A stretch of 36,211 bases of DNA, taken from positions 1-36,211 of the forward strand of contig FZLR01000025.1 in assembly GCA_900197615.1 (NCBI GenBank). The letters run 5' to 3'. This DNA comes from Rhodospirillaceae bacterium Spongia-Bin9. Its GTDB lineage: Bacteria; Pseudomonadota; Alphaproteobacteria; Bin65. Position numbers and translations under genes: made by a program. Positions 1,896 through 34,119 of the stretch are shown here, one piece after another; positions within the stretch are counted from its first letter, which is position 1, and every line of letters begins with the position of its first letter. The notes under the pieces are model-generated. The model was not told the DNA's origin, did no database searches, and saw only the letters and a program-made list of their open reading frames with translations.

Positions 1896-2582
1896 TCAGT
1901 CCGGCACCAGGGCGTAGCCCTTGCCGCGGACCGTTTGCAGATAGCGCGGGTCCCTGGGATTCGGCTCTACCTTGCGGCGCAGCCGGGTAATCAGGACGTC
2001 GATCGCCCGCGCGCTGCCTTCCAGTTCGCCTTCTTCGGTCAGGGTGTCCCGCCCGACCGGCTCCCCTGCACGCACGGCCAGAACCTTCAGCACCCGCGCC
2101 TCAGTCTCGGTCAGCCGGACCCGCGCGCCGGCGCGCGTCAGTTCGAGCCGGCGCATGTCGAACAGGCACGGCCCGAAGGACAGCGCGCTCCGGACATTTG
2201 CGGAATCCGTCCGCTGGCGCCGCAGCGCCGTTTTGATGCGCAGCAGAAGCTCCCGCGGCTCGAAGGGTTTGGGCAGATAGTCGTCGGCGCCGCGCTCCAA
2301 CCCGGCGATCCGGTCGTCCGCCTCGCCCATCGCGCTCAGCATGAGGATCGGCACCGACGACGTGCGGCGCAGGCCCTCGGTAAGCGACAGCCCCGATTCG
2401 CCCGGCATCATCACATCGACGATCAGCAGATCGAAGGTGAAGGATTCGAGCTTTCGCCGCGCCTCTCCAGCATCGGCCGCCACATCGACCAGAAAGCCGT
2501 TGTCTGCGAGGAAGCGCCGCAGCAGGTCGCGCAGGCGCTTGTCGTCGTCCACGACCAGAATATGGGCGCCGCTGTCTTCCAT
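1896..2582 (-). CDS. OmpR-family response regulator
   Basis: 228 residues. The receiver domain (about 6-120) has the acidic pair Asp12/Asp13, phospho-acceptor Asp56 in LLIVDVMMP, and the Lys in YLPKPFEP. The switch Thr position is Ser (LSAMGE), which is common. The C-terminal winged helix (about 130-228) carries the OmpR signature [20 protein letters not shown] and GKGYALVPD. It is the first gene of a two-gene operon with the kinase at 540-1877 and is divergent from ilvE across about 320 bp. The targets are unknown; autoregulation from the shared intergenic region is plausible but not shown. Confidence 0.94.
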
Positions 2583-2736
2583 TGCCGTTGCCCGTTTATC
2601 CTCGCCGGCGGACTACCGGCGAGTGCCGGTGCCCGCAACCCCGGCCGGGAGCAGACGGGAGCCCCGGTCGGCCCGGCGGCCGGTCGCACAGAAAAAGGGG
2701 GTGCCGCCCTGGCTGCCACGGCGTTGCATGAACGGT

Positions 2737-2781
2737 ATGACATCGGTCATCGTTGACTCATTTCCCTAACAATGTTACCCA
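2737..2781 (+). promoter_or_regulatory. candidate ilvE promoter with upstream inverted repeat
   Basis: TTGACT (2753-2758) is followed after exactly 17 bases by TACCCA (2776-2781), about 120 bp before the ilvE start. Directly upstream is the inverted repeat ATGAC-ATCG-GTCAT (2737-2750). The same -35/-10 form (TTGACC, 17, TACCGT) precedes leuA. The match to a sigma-70 -35 box is good; the -10 box is weak, as is often so in high-GC alphaproteobacteria. The inverted repeat could be an operator. This is inference from pattern only. Confidence 0.4.
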
Positions 2782-2902
2782 GCGCGCCCATTTGTTGAAA
2801 TAATCTAACCCGAATCGTCGGGAAAGGCCATGGGCCGCAGCAGGAGCCGTTCCGCTGCCGCCGGGCCGGCACGGCGACGGGCAATCCCGGGAGTTGCGAC
2901 GA

Positions 2903-3814
2903 ATGTCCATGCCGCCGTTTCACGACCGCGACGGTCGGATCTGGCTCAATGGCGAGCTGATCCCCTGGCGCGATGCCAATGTGCATGTTCTGACCCACGG
3001 TCTGCACTATGCCAGTTCCGTGTTCGAGGGCGAACGCGTCTATGGCGGCGAGATTTTCAAACTGACCGAGCATACCGAAAGGCTGCACCATTCCGCCAGA
3101 CGGCTGGATTTCGAAATACCCTGGTCGGTGGCGGAAATCGACGAAGCCTGCCGGCAGGTCGTCGCGAACCAGGGGATCGTCGACGGCTATGTCCGCCCCG
3201 TCGCCTGGCGCGGTTCCGAGATGATGGGCGTTTCGGCCCAGCAGACCAAGGTGAACCTCGCCATCGCAGCCTGGGAATGGCCGGCCTATTTCACGCCGGA
3301 AGCACGCCTTCAGGGCATCCGCATGACAGTGGCCGAATACCGCCGTCCGGACCCGGCGACGGCGCCGACCGACAGCAAGGCCGCCGGCCTGTACATGATC
3401 TGCACCCTGTCGAAGCACGCCGCCGAAGCCGCCGGCTATAACGACGCGCTGATGCTCGACTGGCGCGGGCAGGTCGCCGAGGCGACGGGCGCCAACATTT
3501 TCCTGGTCCAGAAGGGCGTGCTGCACACGCCGGTCCCCGACTGCTTCCTGGACGGCATCACGCGCCGGACGGTGATGGACCTGGCGCGTCGGCGCGGCTA
3601 CGAGATCGTCGAGCGCGCGATCGTGCCGGAGGAATTCGCGCACACCGACGAAGTGTTCCTGACCGGCACCGCCGTGGAAGTAACGCCGGTGCGCGAGATC
3701 GACGATTACCGCTTCAATGTCGGCGAGATCACCCGCACGCTGGTGGCCGACTACGACGCGCTGGTCAACCGGAGCAGCGACAAGGCCGCATCGGCCCGGG
3801 CGAGCGCGGCCTGA
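2903..3814 (+). CDS. ilvE: Branched-chain amino acid aminotransferase (class IV PLP)
   Basis: Moves an amino group between glutamate and the 2-oxoacids of Leu, Ile and Val (EC 2.6.1.42), cytosolic, PLP-dependent. Seen: THGLHYASSVFEGERVY near the N-terminus, RLHHSARRL, the PLP-binding Lys in TDSKAAGLY (Lys159 from this start), and the C-terminal DEVFLTGTAVEVTPVREID. The ATG at 2903 is chosen because GGGAG (2889-2893) lies 9 bases upstream. An in-frame TTG at 2894 would add three residues and has no site of its own. The length of 303 residues is normal. It is convergent with the DUF3179 gene, with stops 3 bp apart. D-amino-acid aminotransferase is a related fold, but the sequence fits IlvE better. 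Confidence 0.93.
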   Translation: MSMPPFHDRDGRIWLNGELIPWRDANVHVLTHGLHYASSVFEGERVYGGEIFKLTEHTERLHHSARRLDFEIPWSVAEIDEACRQVVANQGIVDGYVRPVAWRGSEMMGVSAQQTKVNLAIAAWEWPAYFTPEARLQGIRMTVAEYRRPDPATAPTDSKAAGLYMICTLSKHAAEAAGYNDALMLDWRGQVAEATGANIFLVQKGVLHTPVPDCFLDGITRRTVMDLARRRGYEIVERAIVPEEFAHTDEVFLTGTAVEVTPVREIDDYRFNVGEITRTLVADYDALVNRSSDKAASARASAA

Positions 3815-29618: not shown

Positions 29619-30089
29619 CTACGTCACCGGCACCCAGATCGAGGCCTCGCCGGTCAGCGTCGCCGGGTCGAAGCGCTCGTCGTAAACTTCCAAATCGTAC
29701 CAGGCGCGCAGGCAGGACCGGTTTTCCTGCGCCCACGCGCCGTAGATGAAATCGTAGGCGCGGCGGAATTCCGCGCCGATGTCGCCCCCGGCGAGCGGGA
29801 AGGCGAAGACGGCGAACCGCCCGCCTTCCAGCGTCTTGCCGAACAACCCGTCCGACAGATCGCCGATTTCGCTGACCTCCACGGCCGGCGCGTAGATCAG
29901 TTCGCCGGCCGCCATATCCACCACTTCGTTGAGGCCGTAGGTGTGGCAGCCGATCCGGTTCGGAATGCGCTCCACGAACGGCCGGAACCGCCGCCAAACC
30001 GCCGGCCCGTCAAGCCCCTCGCTCTTCCGGAACGGCTGCGCAAGACCGACGATACGGATGTCGCCGCGTGTGGTGAAGGTGGGGTGCAT
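29619..30089 (-). CDS. GyrI-like/effector-binding domain protein
   Basis: 156 residues from ATG 30089 (AAGAG about 10 bases upstream). It has the layout of the small-molecule-binding domain of AraC/GyrI-type proteins: RGDIRIVGLAQPF, WRRFRPFVERIPNRIG, YAPAVEVSEIGDL, GRFAVFAFPLAGGDIGAEF, FIYGAWAQENRSCL and the final DERFDPATLTGEASIWVPV. There is no DNA-binding part. Free-standing domains of this kind bind hydrophobic small molecules or, as GyrI/SbmC, protect gyrase. The role here is unknown. The frame to 30200 adds an unlike segment and is rejected. Confidence 0.82.
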   Translation of the reverse strand: MHPTFTTRGDIRIVGLAQPFRKSEGLDGPAVWRRFRPFVERIPNRIGCHTYGLNEVVDMAAGELIYAPAVEVSEIGDLSDGLFGKTLEGGRFAVFAFPLAGGDIGAEFRRAYDFIYGAWAQENRSCLRAWYDLEVYDERFDPATLTGEASIWVPVT

Positions 30090-30139
30090 GAATTGGCACT
30101 CTTGGAGGGCGATGGCTGAACCAACGGCCCGTTTGATTG

Positions 30140-30952
30140 CTATAGGAATGAGACAAACCCAAGACCTATGGCCAGAACTACACCAGCACACCAATACCAA
30201 AAAGGATTCCTGTTGTAGTGTTCGTGCAGCGCCGAGGTCCAGCGTGGTTTCGGTTGATCAAATTCACCGCGTTCAAATCTCGAGAGGCCGGTGATGTGAC
30301 CGCCGGTAACAACATCAGCGAATTCTGCCAGTTGGACGGCAAGGGCATCTTTGAGGACGGCCTCCATTGCCGTAACGTCGATCTCTCCCCGTTTAGCGGC
30401 AGAGTCGGCTTTATCGATGGCGGCGTAATACGATCCCTTGTCTTCGGCGATAACCTCAGGGATCGTCTTGGTACCAGGGAGCCGCAGGCCGAGCCTGATG
30501 CAAAGGACCAGATACGAGATGGCTCTGGAAGTACGGCCGTTGCCGTCCTCGAAGGGGTGAATCCAGTTTAGCCGCCACATCAGGTATGCGGCCAAGTGCC
30601 AACCGTCACGCTCCCAGTTATTATTCACATATTCGCACATGTCCTCAACAAAACCATGAACGTCTTGGGGAGGTGGCGGAACGTGATTACTGTGCGTAAT
30701 GCTCATCGGGCCCGGCCGATAGGTGCCGGGCAACTCAGACAGCCCTTCGATCGCGAGCCGGTTCAATCTCGAAACAAGCGAAGGCTTCAGAATGTATTCC
30801 GAATTGGTGTCTAGTTGCTGATCAATGGTGTCTATGACGAATTTTGTTTGTCGAAGACCATTTTCAGCTTCAATTCTGGCAATTTCATCCGGATCGGTGA
30901 CAAGTTCCTTTCGTTCCGGCTTGCTTTTTCGCTGCTCCGGATTTGCAGTCAT
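30140..30952 (-). CDS. Fic-domain AMP-transferase with C-terminal membrane anchor
   Basis: 270 residues. The Fic core motif HPFEDGNGRTSR (132-143) is canonical, with catalytic His132; upstream is LAAYLMWRLNWI and downstream GTKTIPEVIAEDKGSYYAAIDKAD, the flap. Family members transfer AMP from ATP to a target protein. A single hydrophobic segment (about 247-270, WYWCAGVVLAIGLGFVSFL) closes the protein and should fix it to the membrane. The N-terminal helices show no clear inhibitory S/T-x3-E-G/N motif. Lower GC and AT-rich third positions differ from neighbours, a sign of transfer. The antitoxin gene lies 3 bp upstream. Confidence 0.9.
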   Translation of the reverse strand: MTANPEQRKSKPERKELVTDPDEIARIEAENGLRQTKFVIDTIDQQLDTNSEYILKPSLVSRLNRLAIEGLSELPGTYRPGPMSITHSNHVPPPPQDVHGFVEDMCEYVNNNWERDGWHLAAYLMWRLNWIHPFEDGNGRTSRAISYLVLCIRLGLRLPGTKTIPEVIAEDKGSYYAAIDKADSAAKRGEIDVTAMEAVLKDALAVQLAEFADVVTGGHITGLSRFERGEFDQPKPRWTSALHEHYNRNPFWYWCAGVVLAIGLGFVSFL

Positions 30953-30955
30953 TTT

Positions 30956-31135
30956 TTAGTATTCGCCACTGTCTTTGAGCTTCTTAGCGGCATTCGCAAT
31001 AGTATCTTTGGTAATTCTACTATTTTCTATATGTGTATTCCCGTAGGCGAAGCTTTCTCTTTGCTTCTCGGTGTCTTGACGCGTCATCCGGACAGACTTT
31101 GCTGCTTCGACCAATGCTTTCAATTTCTCGTCCAT
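30956..31135 (-). CDS. small Fic antitoxin (class I type), 59 residues
   Basis: ATG 31135 to TAA 30956, then 3 bases, then the Fic ATG. AAAGGCG lies 7 bases before the start. The protein is helical and charged; its middle reads RESFAYGNTHIENSRITKD. The segment GNTHIEN resembles the inhibitory (S/T)x3E(G/N) helix of Fic antitoxins such as VbhA and FicA, with Glu37-Asn38 as the likely blocking pair, though the S/T position is Asn33. Its AT-rich codons match the Fic gene. By family the Glu would sit in the ATP site of Fic and keep it silent. The name is inferred from position, size and motif. Confidence 0.8.
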   Translation of the reverse strand: MDEKLKALVEAAKSVRMTRQDTEKQRESFAYGNTHIENSRITKDTIANAAKKLKDSGEY

Positions 31136-31168
31136 TGCTACGCCTTTCGCACATGCGTTCGGGCACTC

Positions 31169-31198
31169 AATATATGCACCCGGGGTTCAGTTTGTCCA
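31169..31198 (-). promoter_or_regulatory. candidate promoter of the Fic operon
   Basis: On the minus strand TGGACA (31198-31193), 18 bases, TATATT (31174-31169), about 34 bp before the antitoxin ATG. The -10 box is close to consensus and lies in one of the few AT-rich spots here. Confidence 0.5.
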
Positions 31199-31256
31199 TG
31201 ACGATGGACTCTGCCCCGCCACGCCCTCTTCTCGCCGGATCAGGGCGACGGCGTTA

Positions 31257-31493
31257 TCATCCGCCGGAGGGAGCGCCCGACCGCCCCCATCCGACAGCAT
31301 CGCCGACATCGGCTTCGGACAGGCCGGAGCCGGCGAGCTTTGCGCGCACGGCGTCGGCGCGGTTGGCGGGCGCCGGCGTCAGCACGATGCGGCCGTTCTC
31401 CGCGGTCACGTCGAAATAGTCGGCCGGGCCGACGGCGGCGAGCGCGGCCTTCGGCAGGGTCAGCCGGTTTCCGGCGGTCAGTCTGGCGCGCAT
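31257..31493 (-). CDS. AbrB/MazE-type antitoxin, apparently orphan
   Basis: 78 residues. The N-terminal swapped-hairpin DNA-binding fold reads MRARLTAGNRLTLPKAALAAVG, then YFDVTAENGRIVLTP. The C-terminal KLAGSGLSEADVGDAVGWGR matches antitoxins that usually pair with a PIN-domain toxin. AGGAG lies 6-7 bases before the ATG. Its TGA overlaps an ATG (31260), the normal start of a coupled toxin, but that frame stops after six codons. No toxin is left; the Fic operon begins at once. Probably a module broken by insertion or decay. Confidence 0.85.
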   Translation of the reverse strand: MRARLTAGNRLTLPKAALAAVGPADYFDVTAENGRIVLTPAPANRADAVRAKLAGSGLSEADVGDAVGWGRSGAPSGG

Positions 31494-31814: not shown

Positions 31815-33857
31815 TCACGCCGCCTCCCGCGTCCCGCGCTCCACGATTTCGACGATCTCGCCCACGATTGCGGTCAGGTCGAAGTTCTTGGGGGTGTAGA
31901 CGGCGGCGACGCCGGCGTTCTTCAGCGCCTCGGCGTCGGCCGGCGGGATGATGCCGCCGGCGACAACCGGCACGTCGCCCAGCCCTCCGGCGGCCAGCCG
32001 CTCGACGACTTCGCCGACCAGCGCGACATGGCTGCCCGACAGGATCGACAGGCCGACGATGTGGACGTCCTCCTGCAACGCCGCGTTGGCGATCTGCGCC
32101 GGGGTCAGGCGGATGCCCTCGTAGACCACCTCGATGCCGCAGTCCCGCGCCTTGACGGCGATCTGCTCGGCGCCGTTGGAATGGCCGTCCAGCCCCGGCT
32201 TGCCGACCAGCATCTTGAGCCGCCGGCCGAGCCGCTGCGACAGGGCCTCGACCCGCCCGCGCACCGCTTCGAGCGCGGCGATGCCGTCGTCCGAAGCCGG
32301 CCGGACCGCCGGGGCCGCGCCGACGCCGGTGGGCGCCCGGTAGAGGCCGAAGATGCCGCGCAGCGCCTCGCCCCATTCGCCGGTCGTGACCCCGGCATGG
32401 GCGCAGGCGATTGACGGCGCCATGACGTTGCCGCCGTCGCGCACGGTACGCTCCAGTCCGGCGATTGCAGCCCGCGCCCCGGCTTCGTCGCGCGCCTCGC
32501 GCCATTCCGCCAGGCTGGCGATCTGTGCCGCCTCGGCCGCCGGGTCGACGGCGAGGAAGCCGCCGTCCCCGCCGCCCTCCCCGTCATCGCCGGTGAGCGG
32601 CGAGGGCGCACTCTCGGTCCAGCGGTTGACGCCGACCACGGTCTGCTCGCCGGCCTCGATCGCCGCGACCCGCTGCGCGTTCGACGCCACGAGCCGCTGC
32701 TTCATATAGCCGGACTCGACGGCAGCCACCGCACCGCCCATGGCCTCGATCCGCGCCAGTTCCGCCGATGCCTCGTCTTTCAGTTCCGCAACCTTCGCCG
32801 CGATTTCGGTCGAGCCCTCGAAGATATCGCCGTATTCCAGCAGGTCGGTCTCGTAGGCCAGGATCTGCTGCAGGCGCAGCGACCATTGCTGGTCCCACGG
32901 CCGGGGCAGGCCGAGCGCCTCGTTCCAGGCCGGCAATTGCACCGCCCGCGCCCGCGCCCCTTTCGACAGGGTGACGGCCAATGCCTCGAGCAGGATGCGG
33001 TAGACATTGTTCTCCGGCTGCTGCTCGGTCAGGCCGAGGGAATTGACCTGCACGCCGTAGCGGAAGCGGCGCAGCTTCGGATCGTCGACGCCGTAGCGGC
33101 TTTCGCAGATTTCGTCCCACAGCTCGGTGAAGGCGCGCATCTTGCAGATTTCGGCGATGAAGCGCAGGCCGGCGTTGACGAAGAAGCTGATCCGCCCGAC
33201 CGCGGCGGGGAAATCCGCCGCCGGCACGATGCCGCGCACCCGGTCGAGCACCGCGACGGCGGTGGCGAGCGCATAGGCGAGCTCCTGCACCGGCGTCGCT
33301 CCGGCCTCCTGCAAATGGTAGCTGCAGACGTTGATCGGGTTCCACTTCGGCGCCTCGCGGCAGGCGAAGGCGATTGTGTCCGCGGTCAGCCGCATCGAGG
33401 GCTCGGGCGGGAAGATGTAGGTGCCGCGGGAGAGATATTCCTTGACGATATCGTTCTGGGTCGTGCCGGTCAGTTCGGCGCGCTTCGCCCCCTGCCGCTC
33501 GGCCGCCGCGATATAGAGCGCGAGCAGCCAGGGCGCGGTGGCGTTGATCGTCATCGACGTGTTCATCCGGGCGAGCGGGATGTCGCGGAACAGGGTCTCC
33601 ATGTCGCCGAGATGCGAGACCGGCACGCCGACCTTGCCGACCTCGCCGCGCGCCAGCGGATGATCGGCGTCGTAGCCGGTCTGGGTCGGCAGGTCGAAGG
33701 CGACCGACAGGCCGGTCTGCCCCTTGGCCAGGTTGGTGCGGTACAGGTCGTTGGACGCCGCAGCCGAGGAATGGCCCGAATAGGTCCGCATAATCCACGG
33801 ACGGTCCCTTTGGGGGCGGTCTTCTTTTGAGCGATCTTCCGGGGGTCGGTCGTTCAT
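31815..33857 (-). CDS. ecm: Ethylmalonyl-CoA mutase (adenosylcobalamin-dependent)
   Basis: 680 residues. Rearranges (2R)-ethylmalonyl-CoA to methylsuccinyl-CoA. The catalytic barrel has [71 protein letters not shown] and [13 protein letters not shown]. The C-terminal B12 domain has [18 protein letters not shown] with base-off His, and [13 protein letters not shown]. The block [21 protein letters not shown] separates Ecm from methylmalonyl-CoA mutase, which has QTSGWSLTEQ there. Met 33857 is chosen; MRTYSGHSS at 33791 is the latest possible start. A Gly/Asp-rich linker ([10 protein letters not shown]) joins the domains. Divergent from ccr. Confidence 0.94.
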
Positions 33858-34119
33858 GGGCTGCATCCGGCGGGAGGGCTTTCGCCGCACTGCATCAAGA
33901 ATGCGCCGGCGCAAGCGGCGGGCGCAAGCGGCGAAACGGCCGATTTCGCACATATATTACACGGGACGCAAGGTCACGAAACATTGACCAAATTTTATAG
34001 CTTCATGCGCAACTTTATGTCTTTTGCATTGCAACATAAGGCCGGCCGGCGTATGACTCCCGCCCCGGCGCGCGGCCAGGTCGACTTTTCCGGAGCCGCA
34101 GTTACCAGGAGACAGAGCC
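33858..34119. promoter_or_regulatory. divergent ecm/ccr control region
   Basis: 262 bp, with an AT-rich block 33951-34035. It holds TTGACC (33984-33989), the inverted repeat TTGC-ATT-GCAA (34024-34034), and AATTTTATAGC. TTTGCA-type half-sites are known for short-chain acyl-CoA regulators (PccR/RamB group), so this may be such an operator; that is inference. AGGAGACAG precedes ccr. Confidence 0.5.

What the first reader, a model, noticed from the sequence alone, without database searches (positions are those of the whole stretch)
30140..31198. Membrane-anchored Fic toxin with an easily missed 59-residue antitoxin
A short gene at 30956-31135 lies 3 bp before a canonical Fic gene. It has a Glu-Asn pair in a helix like class I Fic antitoxins, but with Asn where Ser/Thr is usual. 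The Fic protein ends in a single membrane segment, which most known bacterial Fic toxin-antitoxin pairs do not have. The block has lower GC and its own promoter. A membrane-tethered AMP-transferase with a soluble inhibitor could act on an envelope or ribosome-export target.
Basis: partly seen in the sequence, partly recalled or inferred. Interest (0 to 1): 0.72.

Follow-up and report, generated by a model that had tools for sequence, protein, structure and literature searches.

The report
Fic toxin with split-off inhibitor gene
A small overlooked gene beside an enzyme that tags proteins with AMP looks like that enzyme's own safety catch split off as a separate gene, making a probable toxin-antitoxin pair whose toxin also carries a membrane tail.

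Summary
Confirmed: a 59-codon gene (30956-31135, -) lies 3 bp before a Fic gene (30140-30952, -) with an intact HPFEDGNGRTSR loop and a hydrophobic C-terminal tail. The small frame is conserved: relatives lie directly upstream of Fic relatives in 24 of 26 credible alphaproteobacterial loci and 23 of 25 viral-contig loci; two more pairs lie in the same genome. No credible Pfam, NCBIfam, PHROGs or PADLOC match. The profile of Glu37-bearing members matches the N-terminal inhibitory segment of single-chain (class II) Fic proteins (0 of 300 shuffles as good). A fused AlphaFold model aligns end to end with human FICD (Z 26, rmsd 2.4 A). So Glu37-Asn38 is probably the inhibitory pair, with Asn33 where Ser/Thr is usual. 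I read it as a split class II Fic acting as a toxin-antitoxin pair. Only 22 of 56 family members carry this Glu motif; a derived clade lacks it. The tail was found in one other member. Same-genus relatives have an AbrB-PIN pair at this site. Neutralisation, AMPylation and membrane location are untested. New variant of a known kind.

The parts
30956..31135 (-). 59-codon antitoxin gene (split class II-type Fic inhibitor); three helices predicted
   Evidence: Conserved upstream of Fic in relatives; AlphaFold pLDDT about 90-98 in this part
31022..31039 (-). Inhibition motif N33-T-H-I-E37-N38 (class II form: [S/T]xxxE[G/N])
   Evidence: Register from alignment and profile comparison; motif in 22 of 56 family members
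30140..30952 (-). Fic (AMP-transferase) toxin gene, 270 codons
   Evidence: PF02661 E 7.6e-18; PADLOC SoFic model E 5.4e-20 over part of the model
30524..30559 (-). Catalytic loop HPFEDGNGRTSR (His132, Arg140, Arg143)
   Evidence: Direct reading; His132, Arg140 and Arg143 invariant in the nine Fic proteins of A2
30143..30202 (-). C-terminal hydrophobic tail, residues 251-270, probable single membrane anchor
   Evidence: Hydropathy 1.85; hydrophobic tail also in the 61% identical relative L063/L041; low-confidence helix in the model
31169..31198 (-). Sigma-70-like promoter TGGACA-18-TATATT
   Evidence: Consensus scan, 10 of 12; not evidence of function
30090..31244 (.). Low-GC segment that four same-genus relatives lack; a PIN toxin gene stands in its place there
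   Evidence: blastn edges against L162-L165 (the edge near 30090 from L162, L163 and L165 only), gene reading, GC

Best explanation
A two-gene Fic toxin-antitoxin module. The downstream gene makes a Fic enzyme with a complete AMPylation site; the 59-residue protein made just before it is the N-terminal inhibitory segment of a class II Fic protein carried on its own gene. It probably docks where that segment sits in single-chain Fics such as FICD, so that Glu37 reaches the second arginine of the Fic loop (Arg143) and keeps ATP in an unproductive pose; when the small protein is lost, the enzyme would AMPylate a cellular target and stop growth. Shown here: the conserved gene pair, the sequence match to the class II inhibitory segment, the predicted fold of the fused pair, the intact catalytic loop, and the tail shared with one relative. 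Inferred: inhibition, AMPylation, growth arrest, possible reversal of AMPylation by the complex (as for Fic-1-AntF), and anchoring of the toxin in the inner membrane by its tail.
For: Pairing: of the 26 credible antitoxin loci (L033-L058) of the class scan, 24 have a Fic relative directly downstream (19 with HPFxxGNGR; 5 with a variant loop, decayed, with stops, or cut by the contig end); 2 have none. Conversely, all 18 of 385 genomes with a Fic match at E <= 1e-30 also have a small-gene match. Of 25 close viral-contig loci, 23 have the small gene; 1 is cut by the contig end and 1 has a truncated Fic and no small gene. Homology: hhalign of the 14 Glu-bearing antitoxins of A4 against 24 class II Fics scores 26.7 (P 6.7e-4) at the inhibitory segment; best of 300 column shuffles 21.2. 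Structure: model of the in-frame read-through fusion (mean pLDDT 87, pTM 0.82), built without any class II row, aligns from residue 1 to 276 with FICD 194-433 (Z 26.0, rmsd 2.4 A, 231 residues). The Glu motif follows the Fic tree: all 16 Fic proteins outside the B+C clade have a Glu-bearing partner, and none of the 31 partners seen inside it has the motif. Decay: Fic matching in two pieces, decayed or with stops beside an open small gene in L160 (Rhizobium sp. Kim5), L040 and L042. Mechanism of the homologues: PMC5033356 and PMC3667792 (passages), PMC13327609 (passages and Discussion).
Against: No function was tested. The strict signature [S/T]xxxE[G/N] is broken at its first position (Asn33). 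hhalign probability is only 27% despite the shuffle result. 34 of 56 relatives lack the Glu motif, so Glu-based inhibition cannot be the rule for the whole family. Whether intact Fic genes with a decayed small gene also occur was looked at only through the 18 genomes and the 25 viral loci.
Confidence: 0.77

Rival explanations
1. Classical class I FicTA pair: the small protein is a diverged VbhA/YhfG-type antitoxin and has nothing special to do with class II proteins.
For: Same gene order (small inhibitor first), same kind of inhibitory motif; in published structures class I and class II proteins bind and block ATP in related ways (PMC3667792, passages). In L183, a VbhA-family member, Asn also stands at the Ser/Thr position.
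Against: None of 39 members matches PF18495 VbhA at E <= 1; a VbhA scan of 190 genomes does not hit the window genome although it holds three of these small genes. Profile comparison with two VbhA-like proteins and with YhfG gives nothing above shuffles (15 and 64 of 100 shuffles as good), though those targets were only 2 and 1 sequences.
Confidence: 0.15
2. A non-toxic regulatory AMPylator: the pair modifies a membrane-proximal housekeeping protein reversibly, and the small protein is a permanent regulatory subunit (a two-chain FICD), not an antitoxin.
For: The fused model matches FICD end to end; [quoted passage not shown] the tail would place it at the membrane.
Against: Presence on plasmids predicted conjugative (11 of 11) and on viral contigs, patchy distribution (30 of 385 genomes), and decayed Fic beside an open small gene fit a mobile toxin-antitoxin module better.
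Confidence: 0.15
3. The hydrophobic tail is incidental: an extension without membrane function.
For: Seen in only 2 of 53 Fic proteins looked at; low model confidence.
Against: The 61% identical relative keeps a hydrophobic tail at the same place, with LHE..Y...P.W.W..G......SF in common by eye.
Confidence: 0.2

Closest known systems
Class II Fic proteins (human FICD, SoFic)
   Same: Order inhibitory segment then Fic domain; the fused model aligns over 231 residues with FICD 194-433; Glu37-Asn38 aligns with the inhibitory Glu-Gly; Fic loop with both arginines. By sequence the Fic protein alone is nearer to FICD (E 3.7e-9) than to VbhT (E 0.017).
   Different: Here the inhibitory segment is a separate gene product; Asn replaces Ser/Thr in the motif; 4 residues fewer before the motif.
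Class I FicTA (VbhT-VbhA, EcFicT-EcFicA/YhfG, Fic-1-AntF)
   Same: Two genes, small inhibitor first, Fic toxin second.
   Different: No detectable similarity of the small protein to VbhA or YhfG (AntF not compared); C-terminal hydrophobic tail on the toxin.
EcSofic-AS1
   Same: Fic enzyme with a small neutralising protein (PMC12249575, abstract and two sections read).
   Different: AS1 is 47 residues, encoded downstream, and acts on a Fic that keeps its own inhibitory helix; its mechanism is unknown. Sequences were not compared here.

Membership tests
Fic/FIDO domain, catalytically canonical | HPFx[D/E]GNGRxxR loop in a PF02661 domain | tested here: met
   HPFEDGNGRTSR; E 7.6e-18, 65.6 bits against a cut-off of 24
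Class I FicTA | Inhibitory segment on a separate small protein encoded next to Fic | tested here: met
   Adjacent conserved frame matching the class II inhibitory segment
Class I FicTA | Inhibitory Glu followed by Gly/Asn | tested here: met
   E37-N38 in register with class II Glu-Gly; met by the window protein and 21 others of 56; the other 34 lack it
Class I FicTA | Ser/Thr at the first position of [S/T]xxxE[G/N] | tested here: not met
   Asn33 in the window protein and in the 21 others with the Glu motif
Class I FicTA | Salt bridge of the Glu to the second Arg of the Fic loop | not testable with these tools
   Coordinates of the model were not returned; end-to-end alignment with FICD is indirect support only
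VbhA antitoxin family (PF18495) | Match to the family profile | tested here: not met
   0 of 39 members at E <= 1
Class II Fic | Inhibitory segment in the same polypeptide as the Fic domain | tested here: not met
   TAA between the frames
Class II Fic | Fold of the inhibitory segment plus Fic domain | tested here: met
   Fused model vs FICD Z 26.0, rmsd 2.4 A, model 1-276
Type II toxin-antitoxin | Toxicity of one protein and neutralisation by the other | not testable with these tools
   No experiment
Tail-anchored membrane protein | Single hydrophobic segment at the extreme C-terminus | tested here: met
   Residues 251-270, hydropathy 1.85; relative 2.14; location in the cell not tested

The most novel reading that the evidence does not exclude
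An uncatalogued antitoxin family created by splitting the inhibitory segment off a class II Fic protein, whose window-type members restrain and perhaps reverse AMPylation through the Glu, while a derived clade (subfamilies B and C, also present in this genome) lost the Glu motif and restrains its Fic by a Glu-independent mechanism; in the window lineage the pair has in addition moved to the membrane by a C-terminal anchor.
Probability: 0.35. Interest if true: 0.66.

Novelty: new variant of a known kind. Interest (0 to 1): 0.52.

Why it matters
Fic regulation is sorted by whether the inhibitor is a separate protein (class I) or part of the chain (class II); the mLife 2026 paper (PMC13327609) says that class I is thought to come from class II and points to gene fission. 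This family looks like such a fission with the kinship still readable in sequence and predicted fold. It occurs on plasmids, viral contigs and chromosomes of Alphaproteobacteria and is missing from the four family libraries searched. Its Glu-less branch would be a natural test of whether Fic inhibition needs the glutamate, and the tail-bearing branch offers a membrane-bound Fic toxin-antitoxin pair.

Tried and rejected
Chance open frame: rejected by conservation beside Fic in independent genomes. Reading S28-F-A-Y-G32-N33 as the inhibition motif (SxxxGN, Gly for Glu): S28 is kept in 56 of 56 and SxxxG in 54 of 56, but the profile comparison puts the class II motif at N33-x3-E37-N38, so I did not adopt it; it remains the most conserved feature and is unexplained. 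VbhA/YhfG membership: see membership test. Pfam CCD48 hit to Fic (E 0.25) and the PDB lipoprotein hit to the small-protein profile (E 0.0044 for the whole chain, 0.85 and 120 for its two stretches) dismissed as chance; best library E-values for the small proteins were 0.019 Pfam, 0.0054 PHROGs, 0.016 NCBIfam, 0.019 PADLOC, each in one to a few members. PADLOC: the window Fic matches SoFic (E 5.4e-20, model 91-244 of 361) and the candidate-defence model PDC-S04 PDLC04839 nearly full length (E 5e-10, 15-202 of 205); this is a lead towards phage defence that I did not follow, not evidence of it.

Subfamily A was first defined by the Glu motif itself (pattern), so '22 have it' is a count, not a conservation test; the independent test is the Fic tree. 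The 56 small proteins are the 39 rows of A4 plus 17 others; L058 (partial, no Fic found) and copies of a sequence already taken (L033, L037, L057, L100) were left out.

First searches that gave little: genome-contig scan with the single sequence (2 distant hits), viral contigs with the single sequence (none), phages (2 weak). Alignments A5, A6, A8 and A9 were not used for folding (class II rows present, or rows misplaced by MAFFT); L101 (subfamily C) was prepared but not folded for that reason. A tail search in the family of G074 held only 2 genomes and added nothing. The phylum scan hit 10 of 398 genomes (one of them, G075 at E 8e-4, probably chance), all in the same class; the output does not show how many genomes of other classes were searched, so absence outside Alphaproteobacteria is not claimed. 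Promoter region of window and L063: no convincing shared element. VIA-align lists VbhT and EcFicT only from model residue 71-76 on; their antitoxins are separate chains, so this says nothing about docking.

Papers, what was seen: PMC5033356, PMC3667792, PMC13327609, PMC2686095, PMC5675462 passages found by terms, PMC13327609 Discussion in full, PMC12249575 abstract, section 2.1 and Discussion. Paper searches made; none of the listings named this small-gene family or a tail-anchored Fic toxin-antitoxin pair. Subscription papers (for instance the 2012 paper that set up the three classes, recalled, and its supplement) are not held, so an earlier listing of these genes cannot be excluded.

Full report
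Observation. The window carries, on the minus strand, a 59-codon gene (31135-30956), three bases, and a 270-codon Fic gene (30952-30140). The three bases make one codon, so both frames are in register and separated only by TAA-AAA. The Fic domain scores E 7.6e-18 to PF02661 and has HPFEDGNGRTSR (His132, Arg140, Arg143). GC is 43-46% over the small gene and 49-58% over Fic, against mostly 65-77% in the flanks with dips to 58-59%. A promoter-like TGGACA-18-TATATT ends 33 bases before the small gene's ATG. The Fic protein ends in 20 mostly hydrophobic residues (251-270).

Is the small gene real? Yes. The same genome holds two further pairs: contig C171 (small protein 38% identical, E 4.1e-5; Fic 39%) and contig C228 (Fic 37%; its small gene found by reading and later by profile). 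tblastn against plasmids finds it in 11 records, all Rhizobium or Sinorhizobium, at 44-46% identity. In the two records with intact Fic that I read, it lies directly before the Fic relative, with the Fic start overlapping its stop; in the annotation it is 'hypothetical protein'. In Rhizobium sp. Kim5 the small gene is intact while the Fic match falls in two pieces. A profile of nine small proteins (A1) hits 30 of 385 alphaproteobacterial genomes at E <= 0.01 (34 places). Thirty loci, one per genome, were fetched. Four (L059-L062, E 0.0013-0.0081) lie in long other frames without Fic and I treat them as chance. Of the other 26, 24 have a Fic relative directly downstream: 19 with HPFxxGNGR, and L038, L040, L042, L044, L054 with a variant loop, decayed, with stops, or cut by the contig end. 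L056 and L058 have none. The converse also holds: the 18 genomes with a Fic match at E <= 1e-30 are all among the 30. In viral contigs, 25 loci with Fic at E <= 6e-25 (L080-L104) gave a small gene by pattern in 20 and, on reading, diverged ones in L094, L098 and L100, so 23 of 25. L089 is cut by the contig end; L104 has a truncated Fic and no small gene.

Known family? No member of a 39-row alignment (A4) has a credible match in Pfam, PHROGs, NCBIfam or PADLOC (best E 0.0054), nor the profile in PDB sequences. PF18495 (VbhA) does not hit the window genome, which has three of these genes, and is over its cut-off in 1 of 190 genomes.

What is it? When class II Fic proteins from viral contigs were put in one alignment with the window pair (A5), MAFFT placed FAYGNTHIENSRIT of the small protein on YTYESNRIEGNTLT, the inhibitory segment of class II proteins. 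I tested this with hhalign: 14 Glu-bearing small proteins against 24 class II Fics score 26.7 (P 6.7e-4, probability 27%) at template 48-90, with a 4-residue insertion in the class II side before the motif. None of 300 column shuffles reached it (best 21.2). The 25 other small proteins score 16.8 at the same place; best of 300 shuffles 16.6, a narrow margin. Reversed alignments gave 12.2 and 11.8 elsewhere. Against two VbhA-like proteins and YhfG there was no signal, with the caveat that these targets are shallow.

Structure. The in-frame read-through of small gene plus Fic (TAA taken as Gln) was folded with 29 rows from viral-contig loci (8 small-protein rows, 21 Fic rows) and no class II row (A7). 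Result: mean pLDDT 87, pTM 0.82; small-protein helices 3-12, 19-35, 43-56 in blocks of pLDDT 90-98; tail helix 311-330 at about 55. VIA-align matches model residues 1-276 with FICD 194-433: Z 26.0, rmsd 2.4 A, 231 residues, 21% identity. FICD's inhibitory Glu is E234 (PMC13327609). Counting from 194 with the 4-residue insertion, Glu37 falls on 234; this is arithmetic, not a measured contact, because coordinates were not returned. A Glu-less subfamily B pair (L085, read through in the same way, A10; its alignment included the window fusion and four other fusions) gives mean pLDDT 92, pTM 0.90 and the same end-to-end match (for example FICD 4u04_B Z 25.2, rmsd 2.4 A, model 11-284). So the docking is predicted to be kept although the Glu motif is gone; because the window fusion was among its rows, this second model is not fully independent of the first.

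Three subfamilies. A (window, Rhizobium): N33-x3-E37-N38, 22 of the 56 small proteins collected. B (C171, Methylosinus) and C (C228, many viral contigs): one residue shorter in this loop in the alignment, and the motif is absent from all 34. A was picked by the motif, so I checked it against a tree of the Fic cores (74: 26 class II, 16 A, 14 B, 18 C). Class II and the two-gene set separate (100/99); B and C join as one group (99/100); B and C are each one group; A is not resolved as one group (34% of bootstrap trees). Thus all 16 Fics outside the B+C clade have a Glu-bearing partner and none of the 31 partners seen inside it (L089's is cut off) has the motif. If class II is the outgroup, the Glu was lost once in the ancestor of B and C. 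The window and G074 form a pair (100/99). Class I proteins of the VbhT kind were not in the tree. The Ser four residues before Gly32 is in 56 of 56 and SxxxG in 54 of 56; this strongest feature of the family has no explanation yet. C-type Fics carry HPFINGNGR, Asn instead of Asp/Glu.

The tail. Of 28 Fic proteins measured, the window's included, two have a C-terminal hydrophobic stretch (window 1.85, L041/G074 2.14; the other 26 at most 1.25). Of 25 viral-contig Fics none shows one (11 measurable, at most 0.58; 14 end too early). The G074 protein is 61% identical over residues 5-267 and keeps LHE..Y...P.W.W..G......SF (read by eye). The tail probably anchors the toxin with its catalytic part in the cytoplasm; location was not tested.

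The locus. In four same-genus genomes (L162-L165) the gene next to the methylmalonyl-CoA mutase relative (31815-33953; PF01642) is a 78-106 residue AbrB-like frame followed by a gene of the PIN kind (146-156 residues; PF13470 E 6.9e-19 tested in L162 only). The window keeps the AbrB-like frame (31257-31493; no Pfam match at E <= 0.001, so the name rests on resemblance). After ATG and five further codons of what would be the PIN gene a stop follows (31260-31240), and blastn similarity resumes only at 30084-30088 (L162, L163, L165). The Fic pair thus occupies the place of the PIN toxin. L166 (G004) is arranged differently; L167 and L168 were only blasted. The G074 contig also has the pair next to the end of the same mutase gene (81% over 102 bp).

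Mechanism. [quoted passage not shown] In Fic-1-AntF the same Glu also makes the complex a deAMPylase (PMC13327609). I therefore expect inhibition through Glu37-Arg143 and possibly deAMPylation by the complex. The target is unknown; nothing here points to an envelope or ribosome-export target.

Verdict. A new variant of the Fic toxin-antitoxin kind: a class II inhibitor carried as a separate gene, in a family missing from the four libraries searched, with a rare membrane-tail variant in the window. It works like class I FicTA; I do not file it as a plain member, because the motif's Ser/Thr is absent and no kinship to VbhA or YhfG was found.

Noticed in passing
window 31240-31493: Orphan AbrB-like antitoxin frame with only the first codons of its PIN partner left; same-genus relatives L162-L165 have the complete AbrB-PIN pair, so one toxin gene appears replaced by another toxin-antitoxin pair.
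   Followed up: partly
L019 (C171) 2226-3076 and L020 (C228) 1548-2388: The same genome has two more pairs of this family, of the Glu-less subfamilies B and C, among 10 Fic matches in all.
   Followed up: partly
Fic genes of L020, L031, L032, L048 and L088-L104: Subfamily C Fic proteins carry HPFINGNGR, Asn instead of the usual Asp/Glu, together with absence of the antitoxin Glu; the chemistry may differ.
   Followed up: no
family-wide; in the window residues Ser28 and Gly32 of the small protein: Ser28 is in 56 of 56 and SxxxG in 54 of 56 small proteins, more conserved than the inhibitory Glu; no role is known.
   Followed up: no
L063/L041 (G074 contig C453): The only other tail-bearing pair found sits beside the end of the same methylmalonyl-CoA mutase gene although the genome is from another family.
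   Followed up: partly
L027 5001-10177: On the Rhizobium phaseoli plasmid pRetR611c the pair lies near an annotated dCTP deaminase and an S8 peptidase; dCTP deaminases are known from phage defence (recalled), and the window Fic matches a PADLOC candidate-defence model, so a defence link may be worth a look.
   Followed up: no
L160 (Rhizobium sp. Kim5 plasmid) 811-1644: Fic relative matches in two pieces while the small gene is intact and bears the same protein accession as in R. phaseoli.
   Followed up: partly
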